Positions 3,955 through 49,640 of a stretch of DNA of 64,000 nucleotides are shown here, piece by piece. The stretch comes from Christiangramia sp. (GTDB lineage: Bacteria > Bacteroidota > Bacteroidia > Flavobacteriales > Flavobacteriaceae). Numbering within the stretch: the first letter of the stretch is position 1; each line of letters opens with the position of its first letter. The stretch is from NCBI RefSeq assembly GCF_029937855.1, contig NZ_JAPYPC010000002.1:124001-188000 (forward strand), given 5' to 3'. The notes beneath the pieces were generated by a model. The model was not told the origin of the DNA and searched no databases. It saw only the letters and a program-made list of their open reading frames with translations. The position numbers and the translations under genes are program-made.

Positions 3955-4028
3955 GGTCTGGTAGTTCAGTTGGTTAGAATACCTGCCTGTCACGCAGGGG
4001 GTCGCGAGTTCGAGTCTCGTCCAGACCG
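3955..4028 (+). tRNA. tRNA-Asp(GTC)
   Basis: A 74-nt cloverleaf. The acceptor GGTCTGG pairs with CCAGACC with discriminator G, anticodon stem CCTGC/GCAGG encloses loop CTGTCAC with anticodon GTC at 3989-3991, and the T-arm contains TTCGAGT. CCA is not encoded. Its 3' end is part of the 22-bp direct repeat used as attachment site, so integration leaves this gene intact. Confidence 0.97.
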
Positions 4029-7865: not shown

Positions 7866-9178
7866 TATAATTCTTCTATTGAATCAATACTAATTTCTTC
7901 TGGTCTTTCGTCTGAAATTTCTATTTGTAAAATAAGATCCTTCTTATCTGCAGAAGGGTTTTGCCTTAATATGTTCAGAATATTCAAGAAATCCCTGATG
8001 ACTTCTCTAGGAGTTAGAAATTCATCAGCACCAGGTTTATTAAAAATCTCTTCCATATACAATTGAATATCCTCATCAGTAATTTCAATTTGGACATTGT
8101 AGTTGGAGTCAAATATTTCTTTCAGATTTTTCAGTAGAACGAATATTTCACTGTGGTTTAAAGGTTGTAATTTAATAACAGGCTGCGAATAGTCTCTAAA
8201 CTTACTTGTTTCAAATTTGTTGGTTTCTAACCTTGTCTTTAAGGCATCATAGCTAAATAAACCTCTCCTTTCGTTTTCAAGGAATTCTTTGGTGCCTGCG
8301 AAATTTATGAATAGGTTGGAAACCTTTCCCTGGAAACAATCATTAAAAATGGTTAGTATTTTTTCATAATTCTTTGCTCGAGTAGGGGAGGTTGAGATTT
8401 TATAAAGATTAATAGCCTCATCAAGATTTATCATAAATCCACTGTATCCAATGCTAACAAAAAGCCGACAAAAATTTTTGAGCATATCATAATAATTCAG
8501 GTCGTTGATTATTTCTCGAACTCCTAAATCCTGACGTGCTTCGGTTTTTGTTGTGTATTCGCCTTTTAACCATTTAAGAGCACTTCTTTTCAAGTAGTCG
8601 TCACCCTCAATATATCCTTTGTAATATTTTAATACTACTACCCCAAAATCAAAACCACCCGTATCTGTAACCTCATTAACTGTTAACATTAAGGTCTGTT
8701 CAATTTCCTGATGATATTTTTCGTCTCTTATTTCTAGAATAGAAACACCATTTTTTTGAGCCGTAGATGAAATTTCTTGTTCTATCCATTTGTCTAATAA
8801 GGTAGGAAGAGCGCCTCCTTCTGGTTTTGACTGGATGGCAACGTTATCCATAATAGCTCTATATAAGGCTAGAGCTTTACCGTCATTAGAATATAATCGA
8901 TTATCAGGGGTGAAATCTGCATTAGCTACTACGAATTTTTGTTTGGTAGCTACGGTATTTAAAAGATGGAGCATAAAAGATTTTCCTGAACCAAAATCTC
9001 CAATCCAGAATTTACACATACTATGCCCTTCCTTTACATCATCCAACGCAGAAGTGAATGCTTCAATTTCTGGTTTCCTACCAACAGTAATATGTTGCAC
9101 ACCAATTCTTGGAACTACCCCACCTGATAATGAGTTAATGATTGCTTTAGATTCTTTTGCTCGTAATTTTGCCGCCAT
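7865..9178 (-). CDS. DUF2791/BrxD-type P-loop ATPase, Shango SngB-like
   Basis: 437 aa. It opens with the conserved segment AIINSLSGGVVPRIGVQHI, then VGRKPEIEAF, and has Walker A GDFGSGKS (residues 60-67), typical of DUF2791 ATPases found in BREX (BrxD) and Shango (SngB). A Walker B-like stretch is GFMINLDEAINLYK. It sits 3 nt after the TerB-domain gene and its stop overlaps the helicase start codon. The role is inferred: energy-coupling or sensing partner of the helicase in phage defence. Confidence 0.85.
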   Translation of the reverse strand: MAAKLRAKESKAIINSLSGGVVPRIGVQHITVGRKPEIEAFTSALDDVKEGHSMCKFWIGDFGSGKSFMLHLLNTVATKQKFVVANADFTPDNRLYSNDGKALALYRAIMDNVAIQSKPEGGALPTLLDKWIEQEISSTAQKNGVSILEIRDEKYHQEIEQTLMLTVNEVTDTGGFDFGVVVLKYYKGYIEGDDYLKRSALKWLKGEYTTKTEARQDLGVREIINDLNYYDMLKNFCRLFVSIGYSGFMINLDEAINLYKISTSPTRAKNYEKILTIFNDCFQGKVSNLFINFAGTKEFLENERRGLFSYDALKTRLETNKFETSKFRDYSQPVIKLQPLNHSEIFVLLKNLKEIFDSNYNVQIEITDEDIQLYMEEIFNKPGADEFLTPREVIRDFLNILNILRQNPSADKKDLILQIEISDERPEEISIDSIEEL

Positions 9179-9181
9179 ATT

Positions 9182-11848: not shown

Positions 11849-11853
11849 AGTTT

Positions 11854-12726
11854 TTAAGCGTTTACAAGATTTCGAAAGTCATCTTCAGACATAATTTTCA
11901 AGTCTATACCTTGAAGAAGCAATTCTTCGGCTTTGCGGTGCTTAGAACTTTTTTTATATCCATTCAATTTAAAATTGTCCTGTGTGCCTACTATCAAAAT
12001 AGTAGTTTTTTTACTTACAGAGTTAGTTACATTACATCCTAATTCTGCTGCCATTTTTCCAGCCTCTGCTCTAGTAAGAAAAAGTGAACCTGTGAAAACA
12101 ATGTTTTCTCCGAATAATGGTCCATCAGGATTTCCTGTTAGACTTATATTACTGGAACCATTTCGATATACATTGATGGAATTATTCACTTTGGATATGC
12201 ATTCCTCTACAGTTAAATTATACTCCTCTAGAATTTTTAAAACCATCTTTCCTGTTGCAATAGCATCCTCTAATGCATCATGATGGTTAAAACTTATTCC
12301 ATAATGAGCCGTAACATTTTTCAATCCATAACCAGATTTAGAGAATTGACTCAAAGTTCTTCTTACTAATTTAGCAGAATCTATCCAGGTTGGTAAATTT
12401 TTTTCAAGTTGGTACTTTTCGTAGGCTCGATTCAGTGCTATTTTATCAAAGGGCATGTGATGGAACACAATATTCCCGTCAATATGTTTTCTGATTTCGC
12501 TATTTATTTCAGGAAGAGTAGGGGCATCTTGCACTGATTGGGAAGTAATTCCATGAATGGAAGAATTTAGACTATCAAAAAAATCTTCTGGATTGACTAG
12601 AGTTTCCCACTTATTGATTAATTCTCCATTTTTGAACTCTGCAATTCCAATTTGGCAGATACTGGAAAAATCGGCATTTGCTGTCTCAACATCTATTACT
12701 TTGAAATGAGATTGAATATTTTCCAT
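11854..12726 (-). CDS. DEDDh exonuclease with C-terminal BRCT domain
   Basis: 290 aa. The N-terminal half is a DnaQ-like 3'-5' exonuclease: Exo I FKVIDVETANAD, Exo II around FHHMPFDKIAL, Exo III HHDALEDAIATG with catalytic His and Asp. Residues about 205-290 form a BRCT domain (ENIVFTGSLFLTRAEAGKMA and SKKTTILIVG). This pairing occurs in epsilon-like nucleases of DNA repair and of accessory defence loci. It lies 5 nt upstream of the TerB-domain gene and 7 nt downstream of the RmuC-like gene, so it is in the same operon; it is not a standard Shango component. Confidence 0.87.
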   Translation of the reverse strand: MENIQSHFKVIDVETANADFSSICQIGIAEFKNGELINKWETLVNPEDFFDSLNSSIHGITSQSVQDAPTLPEINSEIRKHIDGNIVFHHMPFDKIALNRAYEKYQLEKNLPTWIDSAKLVRRTLSQFSKSGYGLKNVTAHYGISFNHHDALEDAIATGKMVLKILEEYNLTVEECISKVNNSINVYRNGSSNISLTGNPDGPLFGENIVFTGSLFLTRAEAGKMAAELGCNVTNSVSKKTTILIVGTQDNFKLNGYKKSSKHRKAEELLLQGIDLKIMSEDDFRNLVNA

Positions 12727-12733
12727 ATTTGAG

Positions 12734-13936
12734 TTATTTAAGTTTTTTCACTTCCTCAAAATTCCTCGGAATTTCGATATCTCTAATCTGCGCTTCGGCA
12801 TTAATGGATTCATTTTTACTTAATAAGTCCTTGGTGAGTATTTGCTTAGTTCGTCTTTCTGTTGGAGGGTTCAGCTTTTCGGCTTTTTCAAATTCGATAA
12901 CAGATTGTAAAAATTCTTCGGGTAAATCGTTTTTACATTTTACCAGTAATTCAATAAATTCTTGTGCAAAAAATTGGTCTATTTGAATCTTCCTTTTCGT
13001 GGTATGAGCAAATTTTCCAACAACTCTACAAATATTATCTCGCTCTTCAGGACTTAATTGGTCAGCGAATTCATATTCCTCGATTTTTTTTAATGATAAG
13101 ATTATTGGTTCTAAAGAGTCCTGTGTGATAATAAAAACGTTATAGCCTCCCATATTGTATGAATGCTGAGGTATAGCGTCAATAGTGTTTGTTGGAATAA
13201 CTAGGAATATGTCTTTTTTAACTCCATCCTGACCAGCATACTTTTTTACATTATCTGTTTGGGCTTTAATATATTTAGGAAAGTTATTTAAGTCTTCGTT
13301 TGCTGGACATTTAGCATCAAATACAATGAATTCATCACAAATGCTTAAAGTATTGTCGGGATTGCCTTTGAACGGAACTTTATCTACATAGGTAACCAAA
13401 TGTTTTTGACAGAGGGCTTTGATTGATTGTTGAACATTTGTTTCATGTTCTGACCACTGTTTTTTCATTTTCTCGAATTGGTCCTGCTTTTCTTGAACTC
13501 TTTCATCATTCAGCCTGATTCTCTCATTATCCAAATCAAGTTTGGCTTGGTTCAATTGAGAAATTTTGGATTCATATTCTTTTTCACGAGATTCTTTAAC
13601 CGAGTCGTATTCAGTTAATTTTTTTTGAATATCATTGAAAGAATCAACCAGGTTATCATATTTATCATTCAATTTCTCATATTCAAAATCCCTTTTTGTC
13701 AAAGTATTTCCTTGGTCTACAACAGATTTGGATAATCCAATATTTTCGGTTTCCAGTTTTGTATTGAGATTCTTTAATTCTTCAATTTTTGAGTGTTGTC
13801 TTTGAACTTGTTCCGTAATTCTTTTGAATTCATCAAAAGCATCGTAACTCAAAGCCTTGATTGAAGACCATGAAAATAGACGCTGCCAGAAATTAAGTTC
13901 TTTAATTCTAGAGAAGAATAGGTTTAGGTTTTCCAT
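12734..13936 (-). CDS. RmuC-like coiled-coil nuclease-fold protein
   Basis: About 400 aa from MENLNLFF (ATG at 13934-13936). A TTG 24 nt upstream would extend it but is less likely. It has a short N-terminal segment, a long coiled coil (about 40-175, heptad-rich, Lys/Glu-rich), then an RmuC-like core with CDEFIVFDAKCPANED, which resembles the PD-(D/E)xK nuclease strand, and an alpha-helical C-terminus. RmuC proteins are linked to limiting DNA inversion or protecting against foreign DNA. It is the first long gene of the defence operon. Family assignment is by motif and architecture. Confidence 0.7.
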   Translation of the reverse strand: MENLNLFFSRIKELNFWQRLFSWSSIKALSYDAFDEFKRITEQVQRQHSKIEELKNLNTKLETENIGLSKSVVDQGNTLTKRDFEYEKLNDKYDNLVDSFNDIQKKLTEYDSVKESREKEYESKISQLNQAKLDLDNERIRLNDERVQEKQDQFEKMKKQWSEHETNVQQSIKALCQKHLVTYVDKVPFKGNPDNTLSICDEFIVFDAKCPANEDLNNFPKYIKAQTDNVKKYAGQDGVKKDIFLVIPTNTIDAIPQHSYNMGGYNVFIITQDSLEPIILSLKKIEEYEFADQLSPEERDNICRVVGKFAHTTKRKIQIDQFFAQEFIELLVKCKNDLPEEFLQSVIEFEKAEKLNPPTERRTKQILTKDLLSKNESINAEAQIRDIEIPRNFEEVKKLK

Positions 13937-14078
13937 GTAAACAATAATATGATAAATCAATATTGAATAATGGAATTGAAGAGGTAGGGATAATCAATCC
14001 ATTTGTAATTATGGACTAATTTAACTAAATATTTGAGTTTTTTTATTCCTTACATTTATTTAAGAGAGAATGTATGCT

Positions 14079-14435
14079 TTAATTGTGAAGATTACTGTAA
14101 TATTTATTCTCAAGCTCCTCCCTAAGCGCATTTGGAAGTTTATTTACCAATGACTCGTCTAAATCAATCTTTAGAGTATACGGAGAGTCCGCATCTCTTC
14201 CTATTAATGTAATGTTGAATCGCCCGTCATAATGTATGCCAACTAAAATATTTTCAAACTCACCTTCTGTAATAAAATAAGATGATTCCGAGTTCTCTAT
14301 ACTATTAATTTGAAATTCATTTTGATTATTTCCATCGAAATTGTCGGATATAATCTGAACCAATTTCAATGTTAAGTTTTGAATTTTAAAATCAATACTT
14401 ATTAATCTTTCATCAATATCGAAAAGAGTTGCCAT
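14079..14435 (-). CDS. Hypothetical protein, 118 aa
   Basis: I do not recognise this protein. It is acidic, has no signal peptide or membrane segment, and is predicted mixed alpha/beta (a helix in residues 8-33, then strands such as NILVGIHYDGRFNITLIG). It is on the same strand as the defence operon, 142 bp upstream of the RmuC-like start, so it could be its first gene or a separate unit. It is preceded by an AT-rich 100-bp gap. Confidence 0.6.
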   Translation of the reverse strand: MATLFDIDERLISIDFKIQNLTLKLVQIISDNFDGNNQNEFQINSIENSESSYFITEGEFENILVGIHYDGRFNITLIGRDADSPYTLKIDLDESLVNKLPNALREELENKYYSNLHN

Positions 14436-14537
14436 TTCATAATTTTTTAATTCGGTTAAAAATATAATATAAAGTTGGGATTGGTCAAGTATTTCAGCTT
14501 TTTGATGGCTTTTCGAGGTCTCAAAAAAAGTTTAATT

Positions 14538-15218
14538 TCACAACGGCTCCCCATAATTCTTAAACCTACCAGACTTTAACCTGTCTTTAATTTGGGCCGG
14601 AGCCTTAAGCCTTTGATCATTTTTTATTTCATCAGCTTTTTTCATCCAGTTCCGGGCACAAGCTTTCCAATTCGTGATCGGTTTTTCACCATTTAATTTC
14701 CAGCCAATGGATTCGTAAAAAAAATAAAAGCTTTTAGCCTCCAGTATACTTCTATTTTCAGATTTAAAATATGCTATTACTACCTGTTCATTTTCTGGAC
14801 ATGTTTGTTTAAAAGAGTTTATAATATGTTTATTATTATGTTTATTAAAAGAGACCATTTTTTGGACAGGTACCTGTTCAGAAACTGAACAAGTCCTGTC
14901 CATTTTTTGATCAGGTGGTGTACAAAATCTGAACAGTTCCACTAGTGAGCCATTTTTTGGACTACTGCTGGGATGGTATTGCAGGTAGCCCCACATTTTT
15001 AGTTCCCTCAGCAGTTTATGATAGGTCGTCCTGGAGCGTATTTTAGCCAGGGACATTACTTGTTTACTGTTCACCATAATCTTTTTCGGAAAATGTTTTT
15101 GATTCCAGAGTTCAAAGAAAGCCAGGTATAAACTGCGATGTGAGGATGAGATCTTTCCATTTTCCGAAAATTTCCGCAACACTCCATTCAGATGACGTAT
15201 GTAATTAACCTCGCTCAC
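14538..15218 (-). CDS. Winged-helix protein of mobilization region (replication-like)
   Basis: 226 aa. The N-terminal part (about 20-100) resembles a winged helix seen in plasmid/phage replication or transcription proteins (SSHRSLYLAFFELWN, SRTTYHKLLRELKMWGYLQY). The C-terminal part (FYFFYESIGWKLNG, ITNWKACARNWM) resembles the tail of replisome-organizer or DnaD-like proteins. Its start overlaps the end of the upstream TraG-like gene by 4 nt (ATGA), so it is the last gene of the mob operon. The function is inferred: replication initiation or regulation of the excised element. Confidence 0.55.
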   Translation of the reverse strand: MSEVNYIRHLNGVLRKFSENGKISSSHRSLYLAFFELWNQKHFPKKIMVNSKQVMSLAKIRSRTTYHKLLRELKMWGYLQYHPSSSPKNGSLVELFRFCTPPDQKMDRTCSVSEQVPVQKMVSFNKHNNKHIINSFKQTCPENEQVVIAYFKSENRSILEAKSFYFFYESIGWKLNGEKPITNWKACARNWMKKADEIKNDQRLKAPAQIKDRLKSGRFKNYGEPL

Positions 15219-16819
15219 CTTTTTCGGTTTTCTGATTTGTATATCGCTTTGGCTTCCTGGTATATTTTCTGAAAATTCAATTCCAGGTCTTTTGCGGAAA
15301 ACTCATGTTTTGGAACCGGTAGTTCCTTGGGCCAGTTCGGCGTGGAGAATTTTACTTTGCGGTCCTTACCATCGGCAAAGGTCACAAACTCACCCGGTTT
15401 TAATCGGAAGAAAACATCGGCCCTTATCTTGGCTACTTCCCGTTCACTTTTGGTAGTTCGGGTATCGAAATTCAGATTATCACTTTTGCTGACACTGATG
15501 CTTTTACGCTTTACGATCTCGAAGAAACTCTCATAGTATTTCGCGGTATCGGGGTCGTTTACCTTCCCAAAGAACTGATAGGAAAGATTGCTCAGGATCG
15601 CTTTTCCTGCTTCCCTGCCATAGAGGATATCATTCTGGATTTTGTCCTGAATAACGTACACCGTAGCTATATTATAGCTTCGTAGGGTGGCAGGGATGCG
15701 GTGCATGTTCAGTAAGCGGATTGTGGAAGCTTCTTCCATAAGAATAAAAGAACCAAGCCGGTCATGTACGCTCATCTGTTTGGTAATCGAGTGAATAATG
15801 GTAGCCACGATAGGAGAGTAAGCCGATTCAAACTTAGGATTATTTACCACTGAAATCACTCCGGGATTTTCAGGATGATTGATATCCAACGGGATCTCAT
15901 CTTCCGACAGCACCATAAAGATCCGCTGTGTACTTATTTTCTTAAAAGCATTGGAGAGCGTACTTTTTACAGAAGCCGTTTGTTTTTCAGAATCCACACC
16001 GTTAATAAACGCGTTGGCCATCGCCTGGGAGGTGTAGTTGGAACTTAAGAAATCTACTAACTGATAGGTGGTTAACTGCTGAAATAAGGCAATCAGATGT
16101 GGCAGAGTACAGTAGCCTGGATGTTCTGTTTTAAGCTTCCAGATCAGCCCTCCAATGATCCCTTCCGCGGCATCATTAAAAAACTTTGAACTACCTGAAG
16201 AACTGCTTTCTTTTTTCTCTAATAGATTTTCCAAAAGGACCCGGGAGATCTCATTCACGCTTTCTTCATCCTCCATATAACGCGGCGCAATGGGATTCAC
16301 CTTATGGTAGATCCTATCAAATGAAATAATATAGAAAGGTATTTTACTTTCCTTGAAGAGGGGATAGGCAATTTTAGAGAGTTCAAAATTTTTATAGTCA
16401 TGGATAATCCCACAGAAAGTTCGCCTGCTAAAATACCTGAGAAACTGGGCCACGACACTTTCAGTTTTCCCACTCCCGGCAGCCCCGATAATGGAAACTC
16501 CTCGTCGGATATCTTTCAACTTCATCGAGCCGGAAGAGAGTGGGATCCGGAAACCGTATTGCCTAGTTATCTTTTCCCTTTCCATCTTCAAAAGCCATTC
16601 ATTCAATAAAATATTGATGGTTATAAGCGGAATAAAATAGCGAATGGAAAGCACCACGAAAAGGTCAAAATCAATACCCGAAGGAAAACTGATCACCAGC
16701 AGTAAAAAGAGAATTAGAAAGTTGATGATAAACCCCCAGGAGGTATTTTTCAGAGTAAAGTAAAATAGGCCGCCCATAGCGACATTTAAAAACAGGATTA
16801 ACAATAAATTAGAATTCAT
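15215..16819 (-). CDS. TraG/TraD-family type IV coupling protein
   Basis: 534 aa. Two to four hydrophobic helices occupy residues 1-70, followed by the P-loop GAAGSGKTESVVAQF (about 112-126) and a Walker B-like SFILMEEAST. It continues with TYVIQDKIQNDILYG and a basic tail, typical of MobC/TraG coupling proteins of Bacteroidetes mobilizable elements. It couples the relaxase-DNA complex to a conjugation channel at the inner membrane. It lies 11 nt after the MobB gene. No channel genes are on this island. Confidence 0.9.
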   Translation of the reverse strand: MNSNLLLILFLNVAMGGLFYFTLKNTSWGFIINFLILFLLLVISFPSGIDFDLFVVLSIRYFIPLITINILLNEWLLKMEREKITRQYGFRIPLSSGSMKLKDIRRGVSIIGAAGSGKTESVVAQFLRYFSRRTFCGIIHDYKNFELSKIAYPLFKESKIPFYIISFDRIYHKVNPIAPRYMEDEESVNEISRVLLENLLEKKESSSSGSSKFFNDAAEGIIGGLIWKLKTEHPGYCTLPHLIALFQQLTTYQLVDFLSSNYTSQAMANAFINGVDSEKQTASVKSTLSNAFKKISTQRIFMVLSEDEIPLDINHPENPGVISVVNNPKFESAYSPIVATIIHSITKQMSVHDRLGSFILMEEASTIRLLNMHRIPATLRSYNIATVYVIQDKIQNDILYGREAGKAILSNLSYQFFGKVNDPDTAKYYESFFEIVKRKSISVSKSDNLNFDTRTTKSEREVAKIRADVFFRLKPGEFVTFADGKDRKVKFSTPNWPKELPVPKHEFSAKDLELNFQKIYQEAKAIYKSENRKR

Positions 16820-22576: not shown

Positions 22577-25500
22577 ATGGATATGAATTTTACAGTTAAG
22601 AATTATGTGATATTAATAATGTTTATTATCACAGGTGTTTGTGTTCAGGCACAAAATGAAATTTCTGGTAATGTTACTGATGAAAAAGGCGTTCCGCTTC
22701 CCGGTGTCTCAGTAATAGAAGAGAACACCTCTAACGGTACCGTCACTGATTTTGATGGAAATTTCAGACTGGAGGTGAATTCTTTGGATTCCCAAATCGT
22801 TTTTTCAAGTATTGGTTTTGAAACCGAAAAGATTTCAATTCCGGCCGATCAGGTGATAAACGTATCACTTAAGCTGGATATGCAGCAATTATCCGAAGTA
22901 GTGGTAGTGGGTTATGGAAACGTTCAAAGGAAAGATTTAACCGGTTCGGTAAGTACTTTGAATACGGAAAAGGTCGAAGATATTCCTGCTAACTCAATTG
23001 AGAGGGTTTTGAAAGGCAGGGTGGCTGGTTTGCAAATTTCGACCCCTTCTCAGGATCCGGGTGCAGGTGCTACTGTAAGGATTAGGGGAGGAAGTTCTTT
23101 GAGAGGATCTAATTCTCCGCTAATAGTAGTAGATGGTTTTCCATTGGGTGACGCTGGGAATTTGAAACAAATAAACCCAGCAGATATAGAAAGTGTGGAT
23201 GTTTTAAAAGATGCTTCGGCCTCAGCAATCTATGGTTCAAGAGGTGCAAACGGGGTGATCATTATTACTACCAAACGTGCTAAAGAAGGGAAAACTACTG
23301 TACGAATTCAACAACAATCTTCAGTATCTTATTTTAATTCAGAGGTAGACTTGTGGAGGGATCCCGTTCTCTTGGCTCAAATTAATAATGAGTCCAGAAT
23401 CAATGGAGGGTTTCAACCACTCTATATAGGTGCTGAAAACTCAACGGGAGTTTATTATCCTTCCGTTTCTGAATTACAATCAGGTGAATGGCCATATTTT
23501 ACAAGGTGGGACGATATTGTCTTTAGAGATGCTCCTATCTCAAATAATACCACCCTTAGTGTAAATAGTGGGACGGATAAAACCAGTTTTAATCTAAGTG
23601 CTAATTACTATACAGATATGGGAGTTTACAAAGACGACGATTATAGTAAGGCAGGATATAACTTAAGGGTCGAGCACGATCTTTTCGAAGATTTTAAAAT
23701 TAGATTTTCAAACATACTTAGTAAAGGTAACCGTGATTCTAATTCTGGCCTAGCCTACTGGCGCAATCCAATATTCCCTGTTTATGATGAAAATGGAGAT
23801 TATTTTCTGGTAGGTACAAATGATTATTTTCATCCAGTTGCCATTTCAGACAATAGGCTTGACAAAACAAAAACGACTGATGTTATTACTTCTCTAGCGT
23901 TGGAGTATGATATTTTTGATGCTTTGAAATTGACTTCACGTTTTAACTATAAATACGGTGAATATATTAATGATCAGTTTTTTCCAAATATTTATACACA
24001 AGCTGGGGATTTCAATAATGGTGCAGCTTATATTAACAACTGGCAATCGCATAATTACGTTACTGAAACGTTTGCGAATTATGACGAGACTTTTGGTGAT
24101 CATACTATTGGATCCACGGCGGGATTCACTTATGAAAAATATTTACAAAGGAATTCTTCACTTGGAGCATTTGATTTTGTCAACGAGACCTTGCAAAACG
24201 AGAATTTAGATGCAGGGAATCCAGAATTGAATCAGGTTTCCAATGGGAAAATTGAAACGGAATTAGTCTCTGGTATTTTCAGGCTTAATTATGGGTATCT
24301 CGATCGTTACTTAGCCACTTTTACTGGAAGGGTAGATGGATCTTCTAAATTCGGGAAGAATAATAAATGGGCTTTCTTTCCTTCCGGTGCTCTTAGTTGG
24401 AAAATCCACGAGGAAAATTTTTTGAAAGACTCTAAAAGCATTGATCAATTAAAATTAAGATTAAGTTATGGAATTTCAGGTAACCAGGGAATCAGTCCTT
24501 ATCAAACCCTAAGTCGATATGGAGTAAGTCAGTATTATGATAATGGAAGCTGGGTAACCGCCATAGGACCGGGGTATGAAGTTGGAAGAGCTGGTCAGGG
24601 AGGGATTGAAGTATTATGGGGAGGAATCCCTAATCCAGATTTAAAATGGGAAACCACTTCACAATATGATATTGGTTTGGATATGGCATTTTTTGAGGAA
24701 AGGCTAAGCTTGACATTTGATTATTACAAAAAGCACACAAAGGACTTATTGCGGGAAAGAATTCTTACTCCTTCTTCAAGCTATGATCGAATTTGGGTAA
24801 ATAATGGGGAAATAACAAATGAAGGTGTTGAATTGAGTGTTAATGCCAACTTAATTAATAAGGATGATTTCTCCTTAACCTCCAATCTAATATTTTTTAA
24901 GAATGAGAATGAAGTCATTGATCTTGGTGGAGTTGCTGAATCTGGTCTTACGGTGGATCCTAATACGGGAATGCAATTTGAATACTCCGGTGTCAGCCTT
25001 GAACAATTTAGGCAATATCCAAATATCCTAGCAGTAGGTCAGCCTGTAAATGTATTCTACGGTTATAAGACCGATGGAATTATACAAGATTTACAAGAAG
25101 GAATTGATGCTGGATTAGATGGCGACCTGGCACAACCTGGAGAGTTTAAATATGTAGATATTAATGGAGATGGTGTCATTAATTTGGATGATAGAACGAT
25201 AATTGGAGACCCTAATCCTGACTTTAATTTAAGTCTAGGCTTAAATCTTAACTATCACAACTTTGATTTTAGTGTGTTTTTTAGCGGGAGTTTTGGACAG
25301 GATGTAATCAATACACAAAGGTTTAACCAGCCCAGCAATCTACCATATAGATGGACTTTAGATAACACTACTAATGATTATCCAAGATTACGTGATGGAA
25401 GGCAAACTTATTTTTCTGATTGGTGGGTAGAAGATGGTTCATTTGTTAGGGTTCAGAATTTAACTGCAGGCTACACTCTACCGTTTGATGGGTCCTTCAT

Positions 25501-25651
25501 CAATAATGCTAGAGTTTATATCAATGCAAATAATTTATACACATTCACTGATTTTGAAGGATATGATCCTGAAGTAGGAACAGATGGTATCTACTGGGGT
25601 GGGTATCCTAGACTTCGTCAGATTACATTAGGGTTAGATTTAACTTTTTAA
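22577..25651 (+). CDS. susC: SusC-like TonB-dependent outer-membrane transporter
   Basis: 1024 aa, the usual SusC length. Signal peptide (1-26), carboxypeptidase-regulatory-like domain (about 28-100, ISGNVTDEKGVPLPGVSV), TonB-box/plug region (SEVVVVGYGNVQRKDLTGSV, then RIRGGSSLRGSNSPLIVVDG) and a 22-strand barrel ending LRQITLGLDLTF. It imports oligosaccharides with its SusD partner using TonB energy; here beta-manno-oligosaccharides are inferred from neighbours. It is the first gene of a plus-strand polycistron, 11 nt before susD. The 260-bp leader has no perfect TAnnTTTG box, consistent with activator-dependent transcription. Confidence 0.95.
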   Translation: MDMNFTVKNYVILIMFIITGVCVQAQNEISGNVTDEKGVPLPGVSVIEENTSNGTVTDFDGNFRLEVNSLDSQIVFSSIGFETEKISIPADQVINVSLKLDMQQLSEVVVVGYGNVQRKDLTGSVSTLNTEKVEDIPANSIERVLKGRVAGLQISTPSQDPGAGATVRIRGGSSLRGSNSPLIVVDGFPLGDAGNLKQINPADIESVDVLKDASASAIYGSRGANGVIIITTKRAKEGKTTVRIQQQSSVSYFNSEVDLWRDPVLLAQINNESRINGGFQPLYIGAENSTGVYYPSVSELQSGEWPYFTRWDDIVFRDAPISNNTTLSVNSGTDKTSFNLSANYYTDMGVYKDDDYSKAGYNLRVEHDLFEDFKIRFSNILSKGNRDSNSGLAYWRNPIFPVYDENGDYFLVGTNDYFHPVAISDNRLDKTKTTDVITSLALEYDIFDALKLTSRFNYKYGEYINDQFFPNIYTQAGDFNNGAAYINNWQSHNYVTETFANYDETFGDHTIGSTAGFTYEKYLQRNSSLGAFDFVNETLQNENLDAGNPELNQVSNGKIETELVSGIFRLNYGYLDRYLATFTGRVDGSSKFGKNNKWAFFPSGALSWKIHEENFLKDSKSIDQLKLRLSYGISGNQGISPYQTLSRYGVSQYYDNGSWVTAIGPGYEVGRAGQGGIEVLWGGIPNPDLKWETTSQYDIGLDMAFFEERLSLTFDYYKKHTKDLLRERILTPSSSYDRIWVNNGEITNEGVELSVNANLINKDDFSLTSNLIFFKNENEVIDLGGVAESGLTVDPNTGMQFEYSGVSLEQFRQYPNILAVGQPVNVFYGYKTDGIIQDLQEGIDAGLDGDLAQPGEFKYVDINGDGVINLDDRTIIGDPNPDFNLSLGLNLNYHNFDFSVFFSGSFGQDVINTQRFNQPSNLPYRWTLDNTTNDYPRLRDGRQTYFSDWWVEDGSFVRVQNLTAGYTLPFDGSFINNARVYINANNLYTFTDFEGYDPEVGTDGIYWGGYPRLRQITLGLDLTF

Positions 25652-25662
25652 AAAATAATACT

Positions 25663-27156
25663 ATGAAATACAGATATAAAATAGGACTACTATTCATTTT
25701 TTTAGGAATAATTTCCTGTGATCTTGAAGAGGAGCCATATGGTTTTTATTCAGAAGATAATTTTTATCAAACCGAAGCTGATGCAATTGCGGCTGTTAAT
25801 TACGCCTATGATGCATTAACTTATCTAGAGTATTCTCGGGCAATTTTTTTCCTGGGGGATTTAGCTACTGATGAAATTTTCCCTAAGAATGACGAGGGCA
25901 TAGATGTTCAAAATTTAAATAACTGGCAAGTTTCTTCGTTTCCAACCAACAGGATTTTGACCAACTTTTTTAAATATGCGTATATAGCCATTAATAGGTC
26001 AAATGCTGTCCTGGAAAATGTACCTGGAGCAAATTATGAAGAGAATTTTCAAAATCAAATTATTGGAGAAGCTTATTTTCTAAGAGCTTGGAATTACTTC
26101 AATCTTGTAAGAGCTTTTGGAAATGTACCTATTCATAAGAATGTTGTCGAAACTCTGGACCAAACTGCAGCACCGCTTTCAGAAAACCTTGATGAAATTT
26201 ATGATTTAATCATTTCAGATTGCCAGCAGGCTATTGAACTTTTAGAAGTAAATCAAAGACTGGGAAGAGCTGATAAAGTTGCAGCCCAGGCTTTGCTTGC
26301 AAAAGTCTATTTGCAAATTGCTTCGGCCAAGGAAAATGGGGTTTCACTTTATACGGAAATGGATAAGGATGTCAATTCAATGTATAGCCTTGCGGAGCAA
26401 ACAGCAGCTCAGGTGCTAGAAGGACAGTCTGTGTATGGATTTGAAGACGATCTATTAGACATTTATGACGTTGAGATGCCTTTAGGAAGAGAGAATATTT
26501 TCCTCCTTTCAATGGATAGAAGTGGTACTATTGAAGGTGATTATTCCAAAATTTCCAAATTATTCATTCCATATATTGATGGGGCGACCATATATCTACA
26601 AAATCCCAATGGAACTTACACCCCTTCTCATGATGGATGGAGTGTTTTTAATACTCAAACAGAATTTTATAATAGCTTCAATGATAACGACAAGAGAAAA
26701 ACAGAGTTGATTGTAGATAGTGTGTATAATGCTCAAGGTGAACTCTCAGCGACTTATCCAGGAGCTATTGTATACCCCTTTTCACGAAAGTATATTGATC
26801 CCAATTTTATAGGAGATAAAACTAGTACGAAGCCATTTCTATTGAGGTATTCTGATGTTGCGCTTATATATGCTGAAGCGGCAGGACCTACTCCACAGGC
26901 TTACGAATTTGTTAATTATATAAGAAATAGGGCTGGGCTTGATGACTTGGATCCAGGATTAAATACAGATGATTTTAGGGCAGCTGTCTTACATGAAAGA
27001 AAATGGGAGTTAGCCTGGGAAGGAAATAGACTCTATGATTTGAGAAGATTCAATATCGTTACCGAAACTGTGTCGGAAGCATCAGGATTGTCTAGTGAAG
27101 AAGCTAATTTTTATCCACTTCCTCAAAGGGAAATTGATTTGAATCCAAGTTTATAA
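25663..27156 (+). CDS. susD: SusD-like outer-membrane glycan-binding lipoprotein
   Basis: 497 aa. Lipoprotein signal with Cys in LGIISCDLEEEP, followed by acidic residues typical of surface-exported Bacteroidota lipoproteins. The SusD/RagB TPR-like fold is shown by IGEAYFLRAWNYFNLVRAFGNVPI, the ALLAKVYLQIA helix and the C-terminal HERKWELAWEGNRLYDLRRF. It caps the SusC barrel and captures oligosaccharide. It lies 11 nt downstream of susC and 16 nt upstream of the next lipoprotein. Confidence 0.95.
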   Translation: MKYRYKIGLLFIFLGIISCDLEEEPYGFYSEDNFYQTEADAIAAVNYAYDALTYLEYSRAIFFLGDLATDEIFPKNDEGIDVQNLNNWQVSSFPTNRILTNFFKYAYIAINRSNAVLENVPGANYEENFQNQIIGEAYFLRAWNYFNLVRAFGNVPIHKNVVETLDQTAAPLSENLDEIYDLIISDCQQAIELLEVNQRLGRADKVAAQALLAKVYLQIASAKENGVSLYTEMDKDVNSMYSLAEQTAAQVLEGQSVYGFEDDLLDIYDVEMPLGRENIFLLSMDRSGTIEGDYSKISKLFIPYIDGATIYLQNPNGTYTPSHDGWSVFNTQTEFYNSFNDNDKRKTELIVDSVYNAQGELSATYPGAIVYPFSRKYIDPNFIGDKTSTKPFLLRYSDVALIYAEAAGPTPQAYEFVNYIRNRAGLDDLDPGLNTDDFRAAVLHERKWELAWEGNRLYDLRRFNIVTETVSEASGLSSEEANFYPLPQREIDLNPSL

Positions 27157-43724: not shown

Positions 43725-43846
43725 ATATGTTAAAATTTAGATTATCTCAAATAAAATGAATGTCCAATTTTGAGGTAAAATTTGTTCTATCTTGATTGTG
43801 TATTTAAAATGTGAGGCAATCTAATTATTGTTATAAGCAAGCCCAC

Positions 43847-43925
43847 GCGTTGTATATGCTCTACGCATTTAGTGAGTGTCTTAGACCTCACCTTGCGGGT
43901 GTACAGGCACCCTCGCAACTAAAAC
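43847..43925 (-). ncRNA. Candidate guide-RNA scaffold downstream of the dead-Cas12f gene
   Basis: Read on the minus strand directly after the Cas12f-like stop: hairpin 1 TTGC-GA-GGGTG...CACCC-GCAA (43893-43918), hairpin 2 GTGAG-GTC-TAA-GAC-A-CTCAC (43872-43891) and a weaker hairpin 3 GCGT...ACGC (43847-43866). Stacked stems abutting the effector stop, with no ORF, fit a TnpB omega-RNA or Cas12f-type scaffold whose guide would lie 3' of it, toward 43830-43780. The guide boundary and target are not determinable here. Part of the segment (TATACAACGCG, GGGCTTGC) also resembles the cassette-boundary repeats, so it may instead be boundary sequence. Confidence 0.45.
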
Positions 43926-45047
43926 TTAATCTATAATAAGTTCTACCCCGGCCTTTTCGGCCTTGTATTTTATTTTGGTCATTAGTTCAAAGTAACTCCA
44001 GTTCCTCACCACAAATTCTTCCTCCTTGGCTATTTCTGATTTTTCTTTTTGATTCAATAACAGAAGAGTTCCTGCCTGATGTTTAACGCAGAAATCTATG
44101 AGTTTCCTGCTATAGACATGGAGGCGATTATGTACATAATTTCTCTCGGTATCACGAAACGTGGTCAGAGCTTTTGTTTTTCTTTTACGGCCTTTTCCAG
44201 ATCTGGCATACGTAACTCCGTGTTTTGCTCTTTTTATAGCAGCCTGTATGGCAAGTCGTCTGTATAAAAATTCCTCTCGTGTACCAATGGTATGCTTCTT
44301 CCTACCAATTTTTACTATAATTGGATATTCAAGGGACAGCGTAGCCTCGGCGATCACTTCAGGTTTGAGTTCATGTTTCTCCTTTTCTATCTCAAATACA
44401 GGAAGCCAGAAGATCTTACCATCCTTTAGTTTTATATGAGAGGTGCAGAGTTTGAGTTCTCCATTCATAACCCTTTCCAGTAAAACTCGCTTATCAGAAA
44501 AGTCTCTTCCCAAATAGGTCTTTAAGGGTATTTTGAATAACCGAAAACAGAAAGCTCTATTCTCTTCATTATAGGTTATTTTACTCATGCCTTCTGTATC
44601 GAATGGAAAAGCCATATCCCTCCTGAAATTTTTTAAAGAACGCTCACCCTTCCAGTATTCGAGTTTTTCTTTATTAAAAGAGCTATATAAGCTACTTTTT
44701 AGATTAGTTAAAATATTAGTAGGGATTTCACCTTTAAACCGGTTGGATACCACCCGATAAGTGGTATGGATTCGCGAACCATTTAAAATGCCGAGGTCGT
44801 CCTTTTTTTCATCTGCAAGTTTATACTTAACCTCTTCTGATAAATAGAGAAAGTCTTTGATCATTTCCTGAACGTACAGGTGAGTGACCATAAGATTGGC
44901 AGCCCGATAAGCCCTGTTTTGCCACTGGTAGAGTGTATTCATCGCTTCTTTTCGCTCTTCTTTAGTGGGTAGGTCTACCAGCAGCTGGATTTTCCGCGTC
45001 AATTTCATCGTCTTATTTGCCATATCAAGCCATTTGTAATTGATCAT
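43926..45047 (-). CDS. Nuclease-dead Cas12f/TnpB-like protein
   Basis: 373 aa from ATG 45047; an in-frame ATG at 45023, just after the sigma stop, would give MANKTMKL and 365 aa. Layout is Cas12f/TnpB-like: N-terminal helical REC/WED region (about 1-225), then a RuvC-like fold from about 232, a basic bridge segment (GKGRKRKTKALTT), the helix RNYVHNRLHVYSRKLIDF and WSYFELMTKIKYKAEKAG. All catalytic positions look lost: RuvC-I reads TLSLEYP where GxDxG is expected (Ser238 for Asp), RuvC-II reads LLLLNQK (Asn332 for Glu), and the protein ends at VELIID before the zinc finger and RuvC-III Asp. It is translationally coupled to the ECF sigma gene. Inference: RNA-guided DNA binding without cleavage, recruiting the sigma factor. 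Confidence 0.85.
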   Translation of the reverse strand: MINYKWLDMANKTMKLTRKIQLLVDLPTKEERKEAMNTLYQWQNRAYRAANLMVTHLYVQEMIKDFLYLSEEVKYKLADEKKDDLGILNGSRIHTTYRVVSNRFKGEIPTNILTNLKSSLYSSFNKEKLEYWKGERSLKNFRRDMAFPFDTEGMSKITYNEENRAFCFRLFKIPLKTYLGRDFSDKRVLLERVMNGELKLCTSHIKLKDGKIFWLPVFEIEKEKHELKPEVIAEATLSLEYPIIVKIGRKKHTIGTREEFLYRRLAIQAAIKRAKHGVTYARSGKGRKRKTKALTTFRDTERNYVHNRLHVYSRKLIDFCVKHQAGTLLLLNQKEKSEIAKEEEFVVRNWSYFELMTKIKYKAEKAGVELIID

Positions 45048-45810
45048 TGTGTTTCTCCTGCATTAGCTTATAAGCCGCTGTAAATACAGCATGTACTTGC
45101 TTTTGAGATAGATTAAGTTCAGTGGCAATAACTTCAAAGGAATATTTCTTCACACATCGCAGCTCCAATACTTTTTGTTGTTCAGTTGAAATTTCATCCT
45201 GAACTTTTCCTTTCACAATAGGTTGCGGCTTAGATTCTGGTTTACTATCATGGTTGAGAATATTTTTAAGATCCTGAATGGCTTGCTTTACCTCATTACT
45301 GGCTTCGGTTATACTTATTCCCATGACCCTGGCAATCACCTTATACCGAAACCCATATTTCAAACAGAGTTCAATAAGTCTTTTTCGTTCTGGAATTAGT
45401 AAGGGTAATACTTTTTGTACGAGTTCAAAATCTTCCTGTTGAGATTCATGGTCCTTCTGGTTCTTGATATCTTCTTTGGGATCATACCCTGCAAGATAAT
45501 CCTGATAGTTCTCATAGCTTTCTAAAGAATTTATTTTCTGGAAGAACTTACGCTTGGGGCTAGTATAATAGGTATAACATTTTCTTTTCATCACCATTCT
45601 CAAAAAGAAGAAAAGATGTTTCTCTGATTCGATCTTATCCCGGTTCGCCCATAATTTTAAAAAAGTATCCTGGACTAAACATTCTATAATGAAATCATCA
45701 TTGATAATTCCTTTACCCAACCAGTAAACCATTCGGCTGTATCGGTTATGTATAAATTTTAAAGCAGCAGGATGACCCTGTGATAATAATTCATAATAAT
45801 CATGTGACAT
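45025..45810 (-). CDS. ECF-type sigma factor with extra C-terminal HTH, partner of dead Cas12f
   Basis: 261 aa, long for an ECF sigma. Sigma-2 region about 10-85 (AALKFIHNRYSRMVYWLG, VQDTFLKLWANRDKI); charged linker; sigma-4 region about 131-184 (RKRLIELCLKYGFRYKVIAR, MGISITEASNEVKQAI); Pro/Lys linker; second sigma-4-like HTH about 207-253 (QQKVLELRCVKKYSFEVIAT, LNLSQKQVHAVF). There is no anti-sigma gene or FecR partner next to it. The stop TGA at 45027-45025 overlaps the Cas12f-like gene (from 45047) or directly abuts its internal ATG. Upstream on the same strand is a 59-aa HTH gene 78 bp away. Confidence 0.9.
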   Translation of the reverse strand: MSHDYYELLSQGHPAALKFIHNRYSRMVYWLGKGIINDDFIIECLVQDTFLKLWANRDKIESEKHLFFFLRMVMKRKCYTYYTSPKRKFFQKINSLESYENYQDYLAGYDPKEDIKNQKDHESQQEDFELVQKVLPLLIPERKRLIELCLKYGFRYKVIARVMGISITEASNEVKQAIQDLKNILNHDSKPESKPQPIVKGKVQDEISTEQQKVLELRCVKKYSFEVIATELNLSQKQVHAVFTAAYKLMQEKHNDQLQMA

Positions 45811-45888: not shown

Positions 45889-46068
45889 TTATTCTCCGAC
45901 CTTCAGGGCTTTTTCCACTTGTTCCAACATTTTATAATATTCTGCAATTAATTCATCTGCATATATCGGAGTTCGATCACCGCTTAGACAATATCTTATG
46001 TAACGAGGAGTCACATCGTATTTACAAGCAAGGGCTTTTACTACTCCAGTGTTATAAGTTTTCTTCAT
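45889..46068 (-). CDS. Small HTH (Cro-like) DNA-binding protein, 59 aa
   Basis: A short gene, ATG 46066-46068 to TAA 45889-45891. The product has a helix-turn-helix pattern (VVKALACKYDVTPRYIRYCLSGDR) followed by an amphipathic helix (DELIAEYYKMLEQVEKAL), like short phage/plasmid regulators of Flavobacteriia. It is the first gene of the minus-strand unit leading to the sigma factor and dead Cas12f, and faces a divergent regulator, with palindromes between them. Probably an autoregulator of the module. Confidence 0.75.
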   Translation of the reverse strand: MKKTYNTGVVKALACKYDVTPRYIRYCLSGDRTPIYADELIAEYYKMLEQVEKALKVGE

Positions 46069-46097: not shown

Positions 46098-46175
46098 TTG
46101 TTCCTTTGTTGGGAACAAAACCAAATATAGTTGATAATTTTCAACTAAACTAACTTTTTGAAGATAATTATCTTC
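46098..46175. promoter_or_regulatory. Divergent control region: promoter and three palindromic operators
   Basis: Inverted repeats TTGTTCC/GGAACAA (46098-46118), AGTTGA/TCAACT (46129-46146) and a perfect 16-bp palindrome GAAGATAATTATCTTC (46160-46175). A minus-strand -7 box TATATTTG (46122-46129 complement, matching TAnnTTTG) sits exactly between the first two, 53 nt from the small HTH start. The palindrome ends 3 nt before the ATG of the plus-strand regulator. This is the layout of a phage-like two-repressor switch. Confidence 0.65.
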
Positions 46176-46178
46176 TGT

Positions 46179-46589
46179 ATGAGAAATATTTTACAAGTTT
46201 TTATAGATATTGCCCAAAATGAAAGGGTTAGTATAACCAACTTAGAAAAAACGATTGGGGCAAGTAAGGGTGTGTTATCGCGGGCAATAAGTAAAGGCAC
46301 TGATATTCAGGCAAAGTGGTTATTAGCATTAGTAGATAATTATCCCCGATATAGTGCAGAATGGATTTTAACTGGGAATGGTCCTATGCTTCAAAAGGAT
46401 TCCGCAGAATCAATTTATAATGAAACTGATCCAGGAGTTCTCCGCGAAAAATTGGTTAACCTCCAAAGCCAAATAGATGCGCTGGAAAAAGCAAATAATG
46501 CTTTGGAAGATGCCAATGATTCTTTGAAAGAGACGAAAGCAATTCTTCAGAAACGTATTACCGAACTTGAAAGCAATTCAAAAAAGTAA
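46179..46589 (+). CDS. Phage-repressor-like HTH regulator with coiled coil
   Basis: 136 aa from ATG 46179. A TTG at 46158 is in frame but would place the 16-bp palindrome inside the gene, so it is rejected. HTH about 8-60 (ITNLEKTIGASKGVLSRAISK) followed by the CI/flavobacterial repressor signature YSAEWILTGNGPMLQ, then a heptad-rich coiled coil (about 85-134) for oligomerization. There is no S24 peptidase domain. It is divergent from the sigma/dead-Cas12f unit and probably controls it. Confidence 0.83.
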   Translation: MRNILQVFIDIAQNERVSITNLEKTIGASKGVLSRAISKGTDIQAKWLLALVDNYPRYSAEWILTGNGPMLQKDSAESIYNETDPGVLREKLVNLQSQIDALEKANNALEDANDSLKETKAILQKRITELESNSKK

Positions 46590-47705: not shown

Positions 47706-49640
47706 ATGAAAAATGAGTTTAATAGAGTAGTATTTTATTCAAAGTATGACTTATCTGCAGATAGAAATCTAGAAAGTGCGGAAAAAATTTTCAAGAAATT
47801 AAATTCAGAAGACGGTTTAGATGTAAATGATATAATAGAATTATACCAAATCAAATTATATTTCGATCACGAGATTTTTCTATCCCGTTGGGATGAAAAA
47901 ACAAAACAAGAATATAAGAATATCGTTGAAAAATATTGGGAGTGGTTAAGAAACTTTTGGATTAAGATTGATGATGAAAATTTTCTAAAACTTTTTTCAG
48001 AAATAGAATTCCATTACTACGATTCATTTTGGACTCTCATAAGCAAATTCAGTACGTTTAAGAAAATAAATCCAAATACTTTGGATGAATTATTAAAAAA
48101 CAAACGTTTTAATATTCGTCCAGTATTAAAGCAAAAGAAGATTGTTGATCATTTTTCAAGAGAAATTAAAAGCTACCTTATCCAATCAAGTGAAACTGCC
48201 GAATTATTACTTTCCTGTTATGAACAAGAGCACTTTTCTGATCACCCTGAGATGCATTTCCCGAAATTTAAGGAATCGGAAATAGAAGTAATTATTGAAA
48301 ACTATTTACAATCACCAAATGCAAATCTAAATTATGTTCGATTAATTGTAAAATCAAGTTATCTAAAACTATCAGACAAAATTAAGCTTAAAGCTAAAAA
48401 AGTATCAGATAGATTGAATGAGGAAATTTTAGAAGAGGGTGTTACATCTAATCATAGAATTGGAGGGACAATTTCCGCTGATCAACAAGAACCGATAAAA
48501 ATATTAAGAGACGAAGGTACCTTGACATATTCTTATTCCGAAAAATGGTTGAATCATACTAAAACATTAAATGGTGTTTTTCAAAATTTTTCAAGTTTAT
48601 TTAGGTATGTAAATGATCAAGGCTGTATAGATTTAGTAACAAAACACTATCAAATAGATCCATTTGAAAACGCTTTAATGAGATCAAGGCATGAATATTG
48701 GATTTCACAAAAATTTTATGAAAAAGGACTCCTTTCTCATTTACAAATTGCTCTCTATTTAAATTATTTAGAGGAAAATGATATATCAATGGAAGAAGTG
48801 ATTTCTTTTCAAGTAAATGAACTTCTAAACGAAGAATTTGAAATTAGTAATTTACGGATATCTGTTCCTTCGAAAAATATATCACCTTATGAAAAAATTA
48901 GAGTTCTAGCTCCAGAGCTAGAATTTTTGATTAAGCAATATGAATGCTATGTAGAAGAAGGACACATAGATTTTGATTTAATTCAATTTAGCTCTTCTCC
49001 TCTTTATTTTGGAAAAGTCAAAAGTATAGTAGAGAAAAAGTACGTTTATGGACAAGGAGAAGAATTTATAAGATTACGTCGAGATTTTTTTTCAAGACAA
49101 TCGATGCTACATTATGTAAAACCTTATCAAGGGAAATATTCTACCTTTTATCAATTAATTGAAAACGAAAAAGTCAATTATGATCAATTTGAAAATTATC
49201 AAAAAAGCGAAATAGATTATTTAATTTCTAAAGGTTATTTAGTTATTGATGAAGACAATATTATTAAAATAAAGGACTCCAGTTTAATTAATGTCATTGG
49301 GATACTACATTATGAAGATGTAATAAATTTTTGGCATCATCCAGAGGAACTAAGAAATAAGATTATAGACCTAGAAAAAATCAAAATGGTCAAATTTGAA
49401 AGTAAATTATTTACAATTGAAGAGAGAAAGTATTTGAATTACTATTTGAATAAGAAGGAGTTTTCGAATGGTTTAGATTTAAGAAACAAATATTTGCACG
49501 GAACCAATAGTAATCTTCATGAGGAACAAAAAAATGACTTATATATTCTTCTAAAAATTCTGATTTCAGTTATTTACAAAATAAAAGATGATCTTGAAAT
49601 TAAGAAATTCATACAACAAACTGGTGTCAACACCGCTTGA
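47706..49640 (+). CDS. Large protein with C-terminal HEPN-like motif, 644 aa
   Basis: Not recognised over its full length. It is mostly alpha-helical, acidic and soluble. Near the C-terminus is LRNKYLHGTNSN, an R-x4-H pattern with the RN..LHG form seen in HEPN RNase domains of DUF4209-like and abortive-infection proteins. It is flanked on both sides by copies of the boundary repeat and lies next to an AbiC-like gene. Inference: a HEPN-type RNase involved in phage defence; the N-terminal part would be the sensor. Confidence 0.65.
   Translation: MKNEFNRVVFYSKYDLSADRNLESAEKIFKKLNSEDGLDVNDIIELYQIKLYFDHEIFLSRWDEKTKQEYKNIVEKYWEWLRNFWIKIDDENFLKLFSEIEFHYYDSFWTLISKFSTFKKINPNTLDELLKNKRFNIRPVLKQKKIVDHFSREIKSYLIQSSETAELLLSCYEQEHFSDHPEMHFPKFKESEIEVIIENYLQSPNANLNYVRLIVKSSYLKLSDKIKLKAKKVSDRLNEEILEEGVTSNHRIGGTISADQQEPIKILRDEGTLTYSYSEKWLNHTKTLNGVFQNFSSLFRYVNDQGCIDLVTKHYQIDPFENALMRSRHEYWISQKFYEKGLLSHLQIALYLNYLEENDISMEEVISFQVNELLNEEFEISNLRISVPSKNISPYEKIRVLAPELEFLIKQYECYVEEGHIDFDLIQFSSSPLYFGKVKSIVEKKYVYGQGEEFIRLRRDFFSRQSMLHYVKPYQGKYSTFYQLIENEKVNYDQFENYQKSEIDYLISKGYLVIDEDNIIKIKDSSLINVIGILHYEDVINFWHHPEELRNKIIDLEKIKMVKFESKLFTIEERKYLNYYLNKKEFSNGLDLRNKYLHGTNSNLHEEQKNDLYILLKILISVIYKIKDDLEIKKFIQQTGVNTA

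What the first reader, a model, noticed from the sequence alone, without database searches (positions are those of the whole stretch)
43926..45810. Nuclease-dead Cas12f-like protein coupled to an ECF sigma factor: putative RNA-guided transcription initiator
The two genes overlap (stop/start) on one strand. The Cas12f/TnpB-like protein keeps the fold layout but reads TLSLEYP at RuvC-I, LLLLNQK at RuvC-II and ends before the zinc finger and RuvC-III Asp, so it should not cut. Pairing a programmable DNA binder with a sigma factor suggests RNA-directed recruitment of RNA polymerase. From memory, such dead-Cas12f/sigma pairs have recently been reported in Bacteroidota; I cannot check how close this one is.
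Basis: partly seen in the sequence, partly recalled or inferred. Interest (0 to 1): 0.95.

Follow-up and report, generated by a model that had tools for sequence, protein, structure and literature searches.

The report
RNA-guided sigma factor and its targets
This flavobacterium carries a close relative of a known two-protein machine in which a cutting-dead CRISPR-like protein and a sigma factor are aimed by a guide RNA, and its guide appears to point to a switch-like RNA leader in front of two nutrient-uptake gene pairs elsewhere in the same genome.

Summary
Minus-strand ORFs 43926-45047 and 45025-45810 are a nuclease-dead Cas12f and an ECF sigma factor. They are full-length homologues of solved chains: 9n9c 'Nuclease-deactivated Cas12f' (E 1.7e-177) and 9n9q_C 'RpoE' (3e-86). 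RuvC-I Asp is Thr236, RuvC-II Glu is missing, and zinc finger and RuvC-III are absent. The pair is a new member of a known kind.

The scaffold was found in 63 of 65 relatives. The usual guide of relatives matches a recurrent, covarying RNA leader without Rfam match, which folds as a rod or as an intrinsic terminator; the guide equals the terminator's 5' arm. A model search found two such leaders in the window's genome, each before a SusC-SusD pair. G plus guide nt 1-10 occurs three times genome-wide: these two leaders and one gRNA remnant.

Best model: guided dCas12f-sigma starts susCD transcription inside the leader, past the terminator's 5' arm. RNA binding, recruitment and start sites are inferred. 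In this genome only 10 contiguous guide bases match. The primary papers were not held.

The parts
43926..45047 (-). nuclease-dead Cas12f homologue (373 aa as longest ORF; probable start 45023, 365 aa)
45025..45810 (-). ECF sigma factor, 261 aa, regions 2 and 4 plus an extra C-terminal region-4-like HTH
43849..43914 (-). guide-RNA scaffold (GAGGGTGCC...GCATATACAAC); three hairpins predicted; scaffold pattern in 63 of 65 relatives
43825..43848 (-). guide GCGTGGGCTTGCTTATAACAATAA (3' end of the RNA not known); the base before it in the gene is C, so the gRNA gene itself lacks a 5'-G
45889..46068 (-). 59-aa ORF upstream of sigma, HTH-like by eye, possibly first gene of the operon
   Evidence: no family search done
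46122..46129 (-). TATATTTG, a box like the Bacteroidota -7 element (motif recalled)
46158..46589 (+). divergent ORF (TTG start), 143 aa, coiled-coil-like C-terminal half; possible regulator
   Evidence: no family above its cut-off

Best explanation
A member of the dCas12f-sigmaE RNA-guided transcription systems. The RNA made 3' of dcas12f guides dCas12f to DNA. dCas12f brings the ECF sigma factor and RNA polymerase, which start transcription at a fixed distance downstream of the target. In this genome the probable targets are two SusC-SusD operons (contigs C49 and C55). The target lies inside a leader that can fold as a rod or as an intrinsic terminator, and the guide corresponds to the 5' arm of the terminator. 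Initiation about 46 bp past the target (recalled distance) would give a susCD transcript that lacks that arm and so escapes the leader's control. Shown: gene anatomy, homology, scaffold conservation, seed matches, leader structure and positions. Inferred: RNA binding, sigma recruitment, start site, terminator escape, direction of regulation.
For: Solved homologues. Scaffold in 63 of 65 loci. G plus guide 1-10 occurs 3 times in 3.9 Mb: the two leaders and the C17 gRNA remnant; 0.26 expected from base composition, reversed-pattern control 0. Both leaders precede SusC-SusD. In relatives 12 of the 15 non-gRNA places examined (30 of 67 matches were examined) lie in the same leader. Base -1 is G in 31 of 31 aligned leaders. 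Rod covariation 0.368 against 0.130 shuffled, terminator 0.225 against 0.169. In the two own leaders rod and a forced terminator fold are nearly equal: -51.4/-51.2 and -51.5/-50.4 kcal/mol. All 5 dCas12f genomes of 120 are among the 24 with the leader, p 2.2e-4. In one relative (G013) that holds both guide types, both targets lie 289 nt apart in one SusC leader (L117/L174).
Against: In this genome only 10 contiguous guide bases (plus the G) match; the rest is offset by 2 nt, and the 16-nt match of relatives is absent. The A. taeanensis-type guide aims downstream of the leader, not at the terminator arm, and its own best site has 3 mismatches to it. Guides 1 and 2 of the C32 paralogue have no convincing target within 3 mismatches. 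In G009 the only match to the common guide is the gRNA itself and G018 has none. Over 31 relatives' leaders the rod is on average 3.6 kcal/mol better than the terminator, so the leader may read through by default. The 5'-G motif and the +46 start are recalled, not read.
Confidence: 0.7

Rival explanations
1. The complex is mainly a roadblock (TldR/CRISPRi-like): dCas12f bound within the leader stops polymerase coming from the upstream promoter, and sigma plays a minor part.
For: The target lies about 105 nt into the presumed leader on C49 and C55; nuclease-dead relatives (TldR) are described as repressors (PMC13418256, passages seen).
Against: Adjacent sigma factor homologous to the sigma chain of solved entry 9n9q; another guide type aims about 260 nt before SusC, far below the leader promoter.
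Confidence: 0.15
2. The guide acts on RNA: as antisense it pairs with the leader's 5' half or with the terminator's 3' arm and so tips the rod/terminator switch.
For: The guide is the strand shared by both helices.
Against: Cas12f-family complexes bind DNA (recalled); a G at -1 in 31 of 31, which RNA pairing does not need, though the rod also constrains it; no reason for the linked sigma.
Confidence: 0.07
3. The sigma factor works alone from its own promoters and dCas12f is an unrelated passenger.
For: ECF sigmas usually work alone (recalled); the genome has 18 region-2 matches.
Against: The pair matches the solved pair; the C32 paralogue of the same genome keeps both genes.
Confidence: 0.06

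Closest known systems
dCas12f-sigmaE solved as PDB 9n9c/9n9m/9n9o/9n9q, matching Allomuricauda (Flagellimonas) taeanensis
   Same: Both proteins full length, 70% identity for dCas12f to L028; same inactive RuvC sites and C-terminal truncation; gRNA directly 3'.
   Different: Different guide. Window-type guides correspond to the terminator arm of the leader; the A. taeanensis-type guide matches sites about 240-290 nt further downstream. The window operon has a small ORF in front and no leader was found before its sigma.
TldR (TnpB-like nuclease-dead repressors)
   Same: Nuclease-dead and RNA-guided.
   Different: Named repressors, no sigma partner (recalled); here the next PDB chains are Cas12f (9nzo, 1.1e-44).
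FecI-type ECF sigma with FecR and SusC/TonB receptor
   Same: Sigma family; SusC targets; some leader copies precede FecI-like sigmas (by eye).
   Different: No FecR domain in the 7 window proteins scanned; specificity seems to come from the guide.
Riboswitch and attenuator leaders
   Same: Covarying RNA with two exclusive folds, one like an intrinsic terminator.
   Different: No Rfam 15 family at gathering score; no ligand known; its DNA is the apparent target of a guide RNA.

Membership tests
dCas12f-sigmaE RNA-guided transcription systems | dCas12f homologous over full length to 9n9c | tested here: met
   E 1.7e-177, residues 10-372 on 2-364
dCas12f-sigmaE RNA-guided transcription systems | RuvC catalytic residues lost | tested here: met
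   Thr236 at RuvC-I, no Glu at RuvC-II, C-terminus ends before zinc finger and RuvC-III
dCas12f-sigmaE RNA-guided transcription systems | adjacent ECF sigma homologous to the 9n9q sigma chain | tested here: met
   E 3e-86 over 3-260
dCas12f-sigmaE RNA-guided transcription systems | guide RNA gene directly 3' of dcas12f | tested here: met
   conserved scaffold by sequence; expression not tested
dCas12f-sigmaE RNA-guided transcription systems | guide matches a 5'-G-flanked site upstream of susCD in the same genome (criterion recalled) | tested here: inconclusive
   G + 10 nt at two susCD leaders; no longer contiguous match
dCas12f-sigmaE RNA-guided transcription systems | RNA binding, sigma recruitment, defined start site | not testable with these tools
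   needs RIP-seq, ChIP-seq, start-site mapping
CRISPR-Cas type V-F | repeat-spacer array next to the effector | tested here: not met
   one exact scaffold unit at the window locus; three units at C32, each with its own full scaffold; no separate repeat search was run
CRISPR-Cas type V-F | intact RuvC residues | tested here: not met
TldR | TnpB derivative without sigma partner | tested here: not met
   next PDB chains are Cas12f; linked sigma
FecI/FecR ECF systems | adjacent FecR-like anti-sigma | tested here: not met
   no FecR domain in 7 window proteins scanned with Pfam
Rfam families | match of the leader or gRNA at gathering score | tested here: not met
   (only a tRNA at 3955-4028); permissive scans empty; one search gives three sub-threshold hits outside the rod

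The most novel reading that the evidence does not exclude
A guide RNA aims sigma-bearing dCas12f at one arm of a bistable RNA attenuator that is repeated before many SusC and sigma genes. New transcripts start between the terminator's arms and so escape attenuation, with one guide addressing a whole regulon of leader copies, including in relatives the machine's own sigma-dCas12f operon.
Probability: 0.4. Interest if true: 0.8.

Novelty: new member of a known kind. Interest (0 to 1): 0.55.

Why it matters
RNA-guided transcription by an exapted Cas12f is a recent kind of gene control (recalled; supported here by the solved entries). This locus adds a member with its guide and its probable regulon. 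It also ties the guides to a covarying RNA switch, absent from Rfam, in front of nutrient-uptake genes of Flavobacteriaceae. That gives a testable link between DNA targeting and transcription attenuation, and could explain why guides stay conserved: the target is held fixed by RNA structure.

Tried and rejected
Searching the window for exact matches of 11 nt or more to the region behind dCas12f gave 11-13-nt matches, none covering the guide start. The SusC-SusD pair at 22577-27156 in the window carries neither the G+10-nt seed nor a leader. A 17-nt search of the own genome with up to 3 mismatches gave the gRNA, the C17 gRNA and five other places, of which the two viewed lie in ORFs; it missed the leaders because of the 2-nt offset. 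Autoregulation of the window's own sigma was dropped: no leader was found before it (150 of 1473 first-look candidates scored). Guides 1 and 2 of C32: no convincing target (one search gave one 3-mismatch place against 2 control hits; none). First-pass leader collection (60 rows) mixed in gRNA genes read backwards; 39 were kept. A1 used 31: the 39 minus seven similar rows (L011, L022, L025, L029, L032, L054, L059) and two with a replaced 5' half (L104, L121), plus L013, which the filter had dropped. L118, L122 and L123 lie outside the strict leader. Upstream promoter test: 55 of 65 leaders have TAnnTTTG, but only 16 also have a TTG 15-25 nt before it. No structure prediction was run, because solved homologues exist. 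On checking, the A. taeanensis guide was found to differ from its best site at 3 bases (2 to the search pattern, which held a Y), so confidence was lowered from 0.72 to 0.70.

Full report
OBSERVATION. The C32 paralogue of the same genome and the solved chain start at the residue equivalent to Met9. The real dCas12f start is therefore probably 45023, and the 23-nt overlap an effect of taking the longest ORF. Against sequences of solved structures, dCas12f matches 9n9c 'Nuclease-deactivated Cas12f' over 10-372 with E 1.7e-177; the next chain is Cas12f 9nzo (1.1e-44). The sigma factor matches 9n9q chain C 'RpoE' over 3-260 with E 3e-86. The dCas12f of locus L028, titled Allomuricauda taeanensis, aligns to 9n9c over 364 residues without a difference in the printed alignment, so that is the solved system. 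The window protein is 70% identical to it.

INACTIVITY. Aligned with 9nzo, the RuvC-I Asp is Thr236, no Glu stands at RuvC-II, and the protein ends before the zinc finger and RuvC-III. Profile matches stop at 338 of 389 (NF040570) and 337 of 398 (Cas12u3).

RELATIVES AND COPIES. 65 loci of relatives were fetched; their titles name Bacteroidota, mostly genera that I recall as Flavobacteriaceae. The window's genome holds three copies: the window's; one on C32 (90% identical, with its own sigma, and three gRNA units); and a broken one on C17 at the edge of what looks by eye like a mobile element, still followed by a gRNA unit. The broken copy was only described.

GUIDE RNA. Directly after dcas12f a scaffold of about 66 nt begins with GAGGGTGC and ends with GCATATACAAC. 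It was found by pattern in 63 of 65 relatives, 86 units in all. Three hairpins are predicted from 22 units; only 3 of their 15 pairs show changes on both sides, since the scaffold hardly varies. It has no Rfam match. Of the 86 following sequences 52 hold CGTGGG within their first 9 nt. In the window the guide is GCGTGGGCTTGCTTATAACAATAA, from 43848 downwards; its 3' end is not known.

TARGETS IN RELATIVES. Nineteen genomes of relatives were searched for the common guide with up to one mismatch: 67 matches in 18 of 19 genomes against 13 for the reversed pattern (sums of its rows). 30 of the 67 came with loci and were read: 15 are gRNAs; of the other 15, 12 lie in one recurrent element, in 11 genomes. 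In G009 the only match is the gRNA itself, and G018 has none. Two of the 12 (L104, L121) have the element's 5' half replaced but keep target and terminator. In 33 of 65 relatives' loci the element also lies on the dCas12f strand; in 29 of these 33 it is 0.9-1.1 kb before dCas12f, that is just before the sigma gene (sigma start seen at about 180-215 nt in L031, L127, L135, L155).

THE ELEMENT. An alignment of 31 copies gives a rod of five helices: 98.8% of cells paired, 15 of 32 pairs with changes on both sides, covariation 0.368 against 0.130 +/- 0.008 in shuffles and at most 0.072 when slid. The second half gives an exclusive alternative: a terminator-like stem (GGCGTGGGCTC..CTTAT with ATAAGTTGAGT..CCACGCC) followed by T. 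It has 97.8% of cells paired (95.4% in shuffles), 6 of 18 pairs with changes on both sides, and covariation 0.225 against 0.169 in shuffles and at most 0.090 when slid. Related sequences can exceed such shuffles without structure, so the slid controls are the better guide; the terminator evidence is weaker than that for the rod. The guide equals the arm shared by both folds. 55 of 65 copies have TAnnTTTG 55-95 nt before the rod, 52 sites being at -58 to -63 (mean 3.07, maximum 8 of 65 in 200 base shuffles), but only 16 also have a TTG 15-25 nt before it; that TAnnTTTG is the Bacteroidota -7 box is recalled. Among 30 loci of the model search, 19 have a small divergent ORF, helix-turn-helix-like by eye, 172-240 nt upstream of the core. 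Of the 22 closer copies there, 14 are followed by a SusC-like ORF, 2 by a FecI-like sigma, 2 by sigma-dCas12f, and 4 by something else or nothing (by eye). The 8 more distant ones (L145-L152) have other neighbours. No Rfam family matches at gathering score; a permissive scan of one relative's element is empty, and one of the C49 leader gives only sub-threshold hits outside the rod.

OWN GENOME. A model of the element (R1) finds two copies: C55:70596-70731 (E 7.0e-26) and C49:26097-26233 (3.8e-25); 150 of 1473 first-look candidates were scored. Both precede SusC-SusD pairs, with SusC starting 496 nt after the target on C49 and about 545 nt on C55 (derived). GGCGTGGGCTT (the G plus guide 1-10) occurs three times in 3.9 Mb: the two elements and the C17 gRNA; 0.26 expected from base composition, reversed control 0. 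The match then slips by two bases. In both own leaders the rod and a fold forced into the terminator are nearly equal in computed energy (-51.4/-51.2 and -51.5/-50.4 kcal/mol). Over the 31 relatives, folded without the first hairpin, the rod is on average 3.6 kcal/mol better; in 5 of 31 the terminator is better.

CO-OCCURRENCE. Of 120 genomes drawn from the family, 24 have the element at E up to 0.001 (stricter filters) and 5 have dCas12f at E up to 1e-30; all 5 are among the 24 (Fisher p 2.2e-4). The window's genome is one of the 5 and the genomes are related, so p is only indicative. The element is the commoner partner and probably has a role of its own.

THE SOLVED SYSTEM. The A. taeanensis-type guides were searched in five genomes. 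At 3 mismatches hits are no more frequent than in the reversed controls. At 1-2 mismatches to the pattern there are 10 places besides the gRNAs; six were viewed. Five of them (L174, L176, L178, L181, L186) lie about 235-290 nt after the same leader; in L178, L181 and L186 a SusC-like ORF starts 259-261 nt further on. The sixth (L179) has no leader. L178, in A. taeanensis itself, differs from its guide at 3 bases (2 from the pattern). G013 holds both guide types (L014, L029), and both targets lie in one leader before a SusC-like ORF, 289 nt apart (L117, L174). So two guide types converge on the same SusC leaders.

MECHANISM. Recalled, not read: a 5'-G target-adjacent motif and a start about 46 bp downstream. 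With the guide start set at GCGTGGG, base -1 is G in 31 of 31, and the 3' arm of the terminator begins 58-62 nt after the guide start. A start near +46 lies between the outer arms, so the new RNA could not form the terminator. This step is inferred. Whether the leader is already described in the primary papers is unknown, since none was held (searches; look-ups). Papers seen: passages of PMC13418256, PMC12857756 and PMC9723704; otherwise only search listings.

Noticed in passing
window 47706-49640 (+): 644-aa protein matching PADLOC candidate defence family PDC-S56 (E 1.3e-208) near the dCas12f locus.
   Followed up: no
window 22577-27156 (+): SusC-SusD pair in a run of plus-strand genes; no guide seed and no leader here.
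   Followed up: partly
G000:C17 (L096) 6758-16000: Broken dcas12f with a gRNA unit beside genes that by eye look like relaxase, primase and integrase, next to an mnmE-like gene; perhaps the end of a mobilisable element.
   Followed up: partly
G000:C32 (L097) 7150-7540: Three successive gRNA units with three different guides behind the paralogous dcas12f; for two of them no convincing target within 3 mismatches.
   Followed up: partly
L145-L152: More distant copies of the rod-like RNA without the SusC or small divergent neighbours; perhaps a stand-alone small RNA in other Flavobacteriaceae.
   Followed up: no
L174, L178, L181 around the second target: The A. taeanensis-type target TTGTGGGA is itself the 5' arm of an inverted repeat (its complement about 48 nt later), read by eye.
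   Followed up: no
upstream of the leaders: Many copies show a palindrome, different in each, before the promoter-like box; may be the operator of the small divergent gene. Seen by eye only.
   Followed up: no
window 45025-45810 (-): The sigma factor carries a second region-4-like stretch at its C-terminus (206-240); the solved chain has the same length and aligns there.
   Followed up: no
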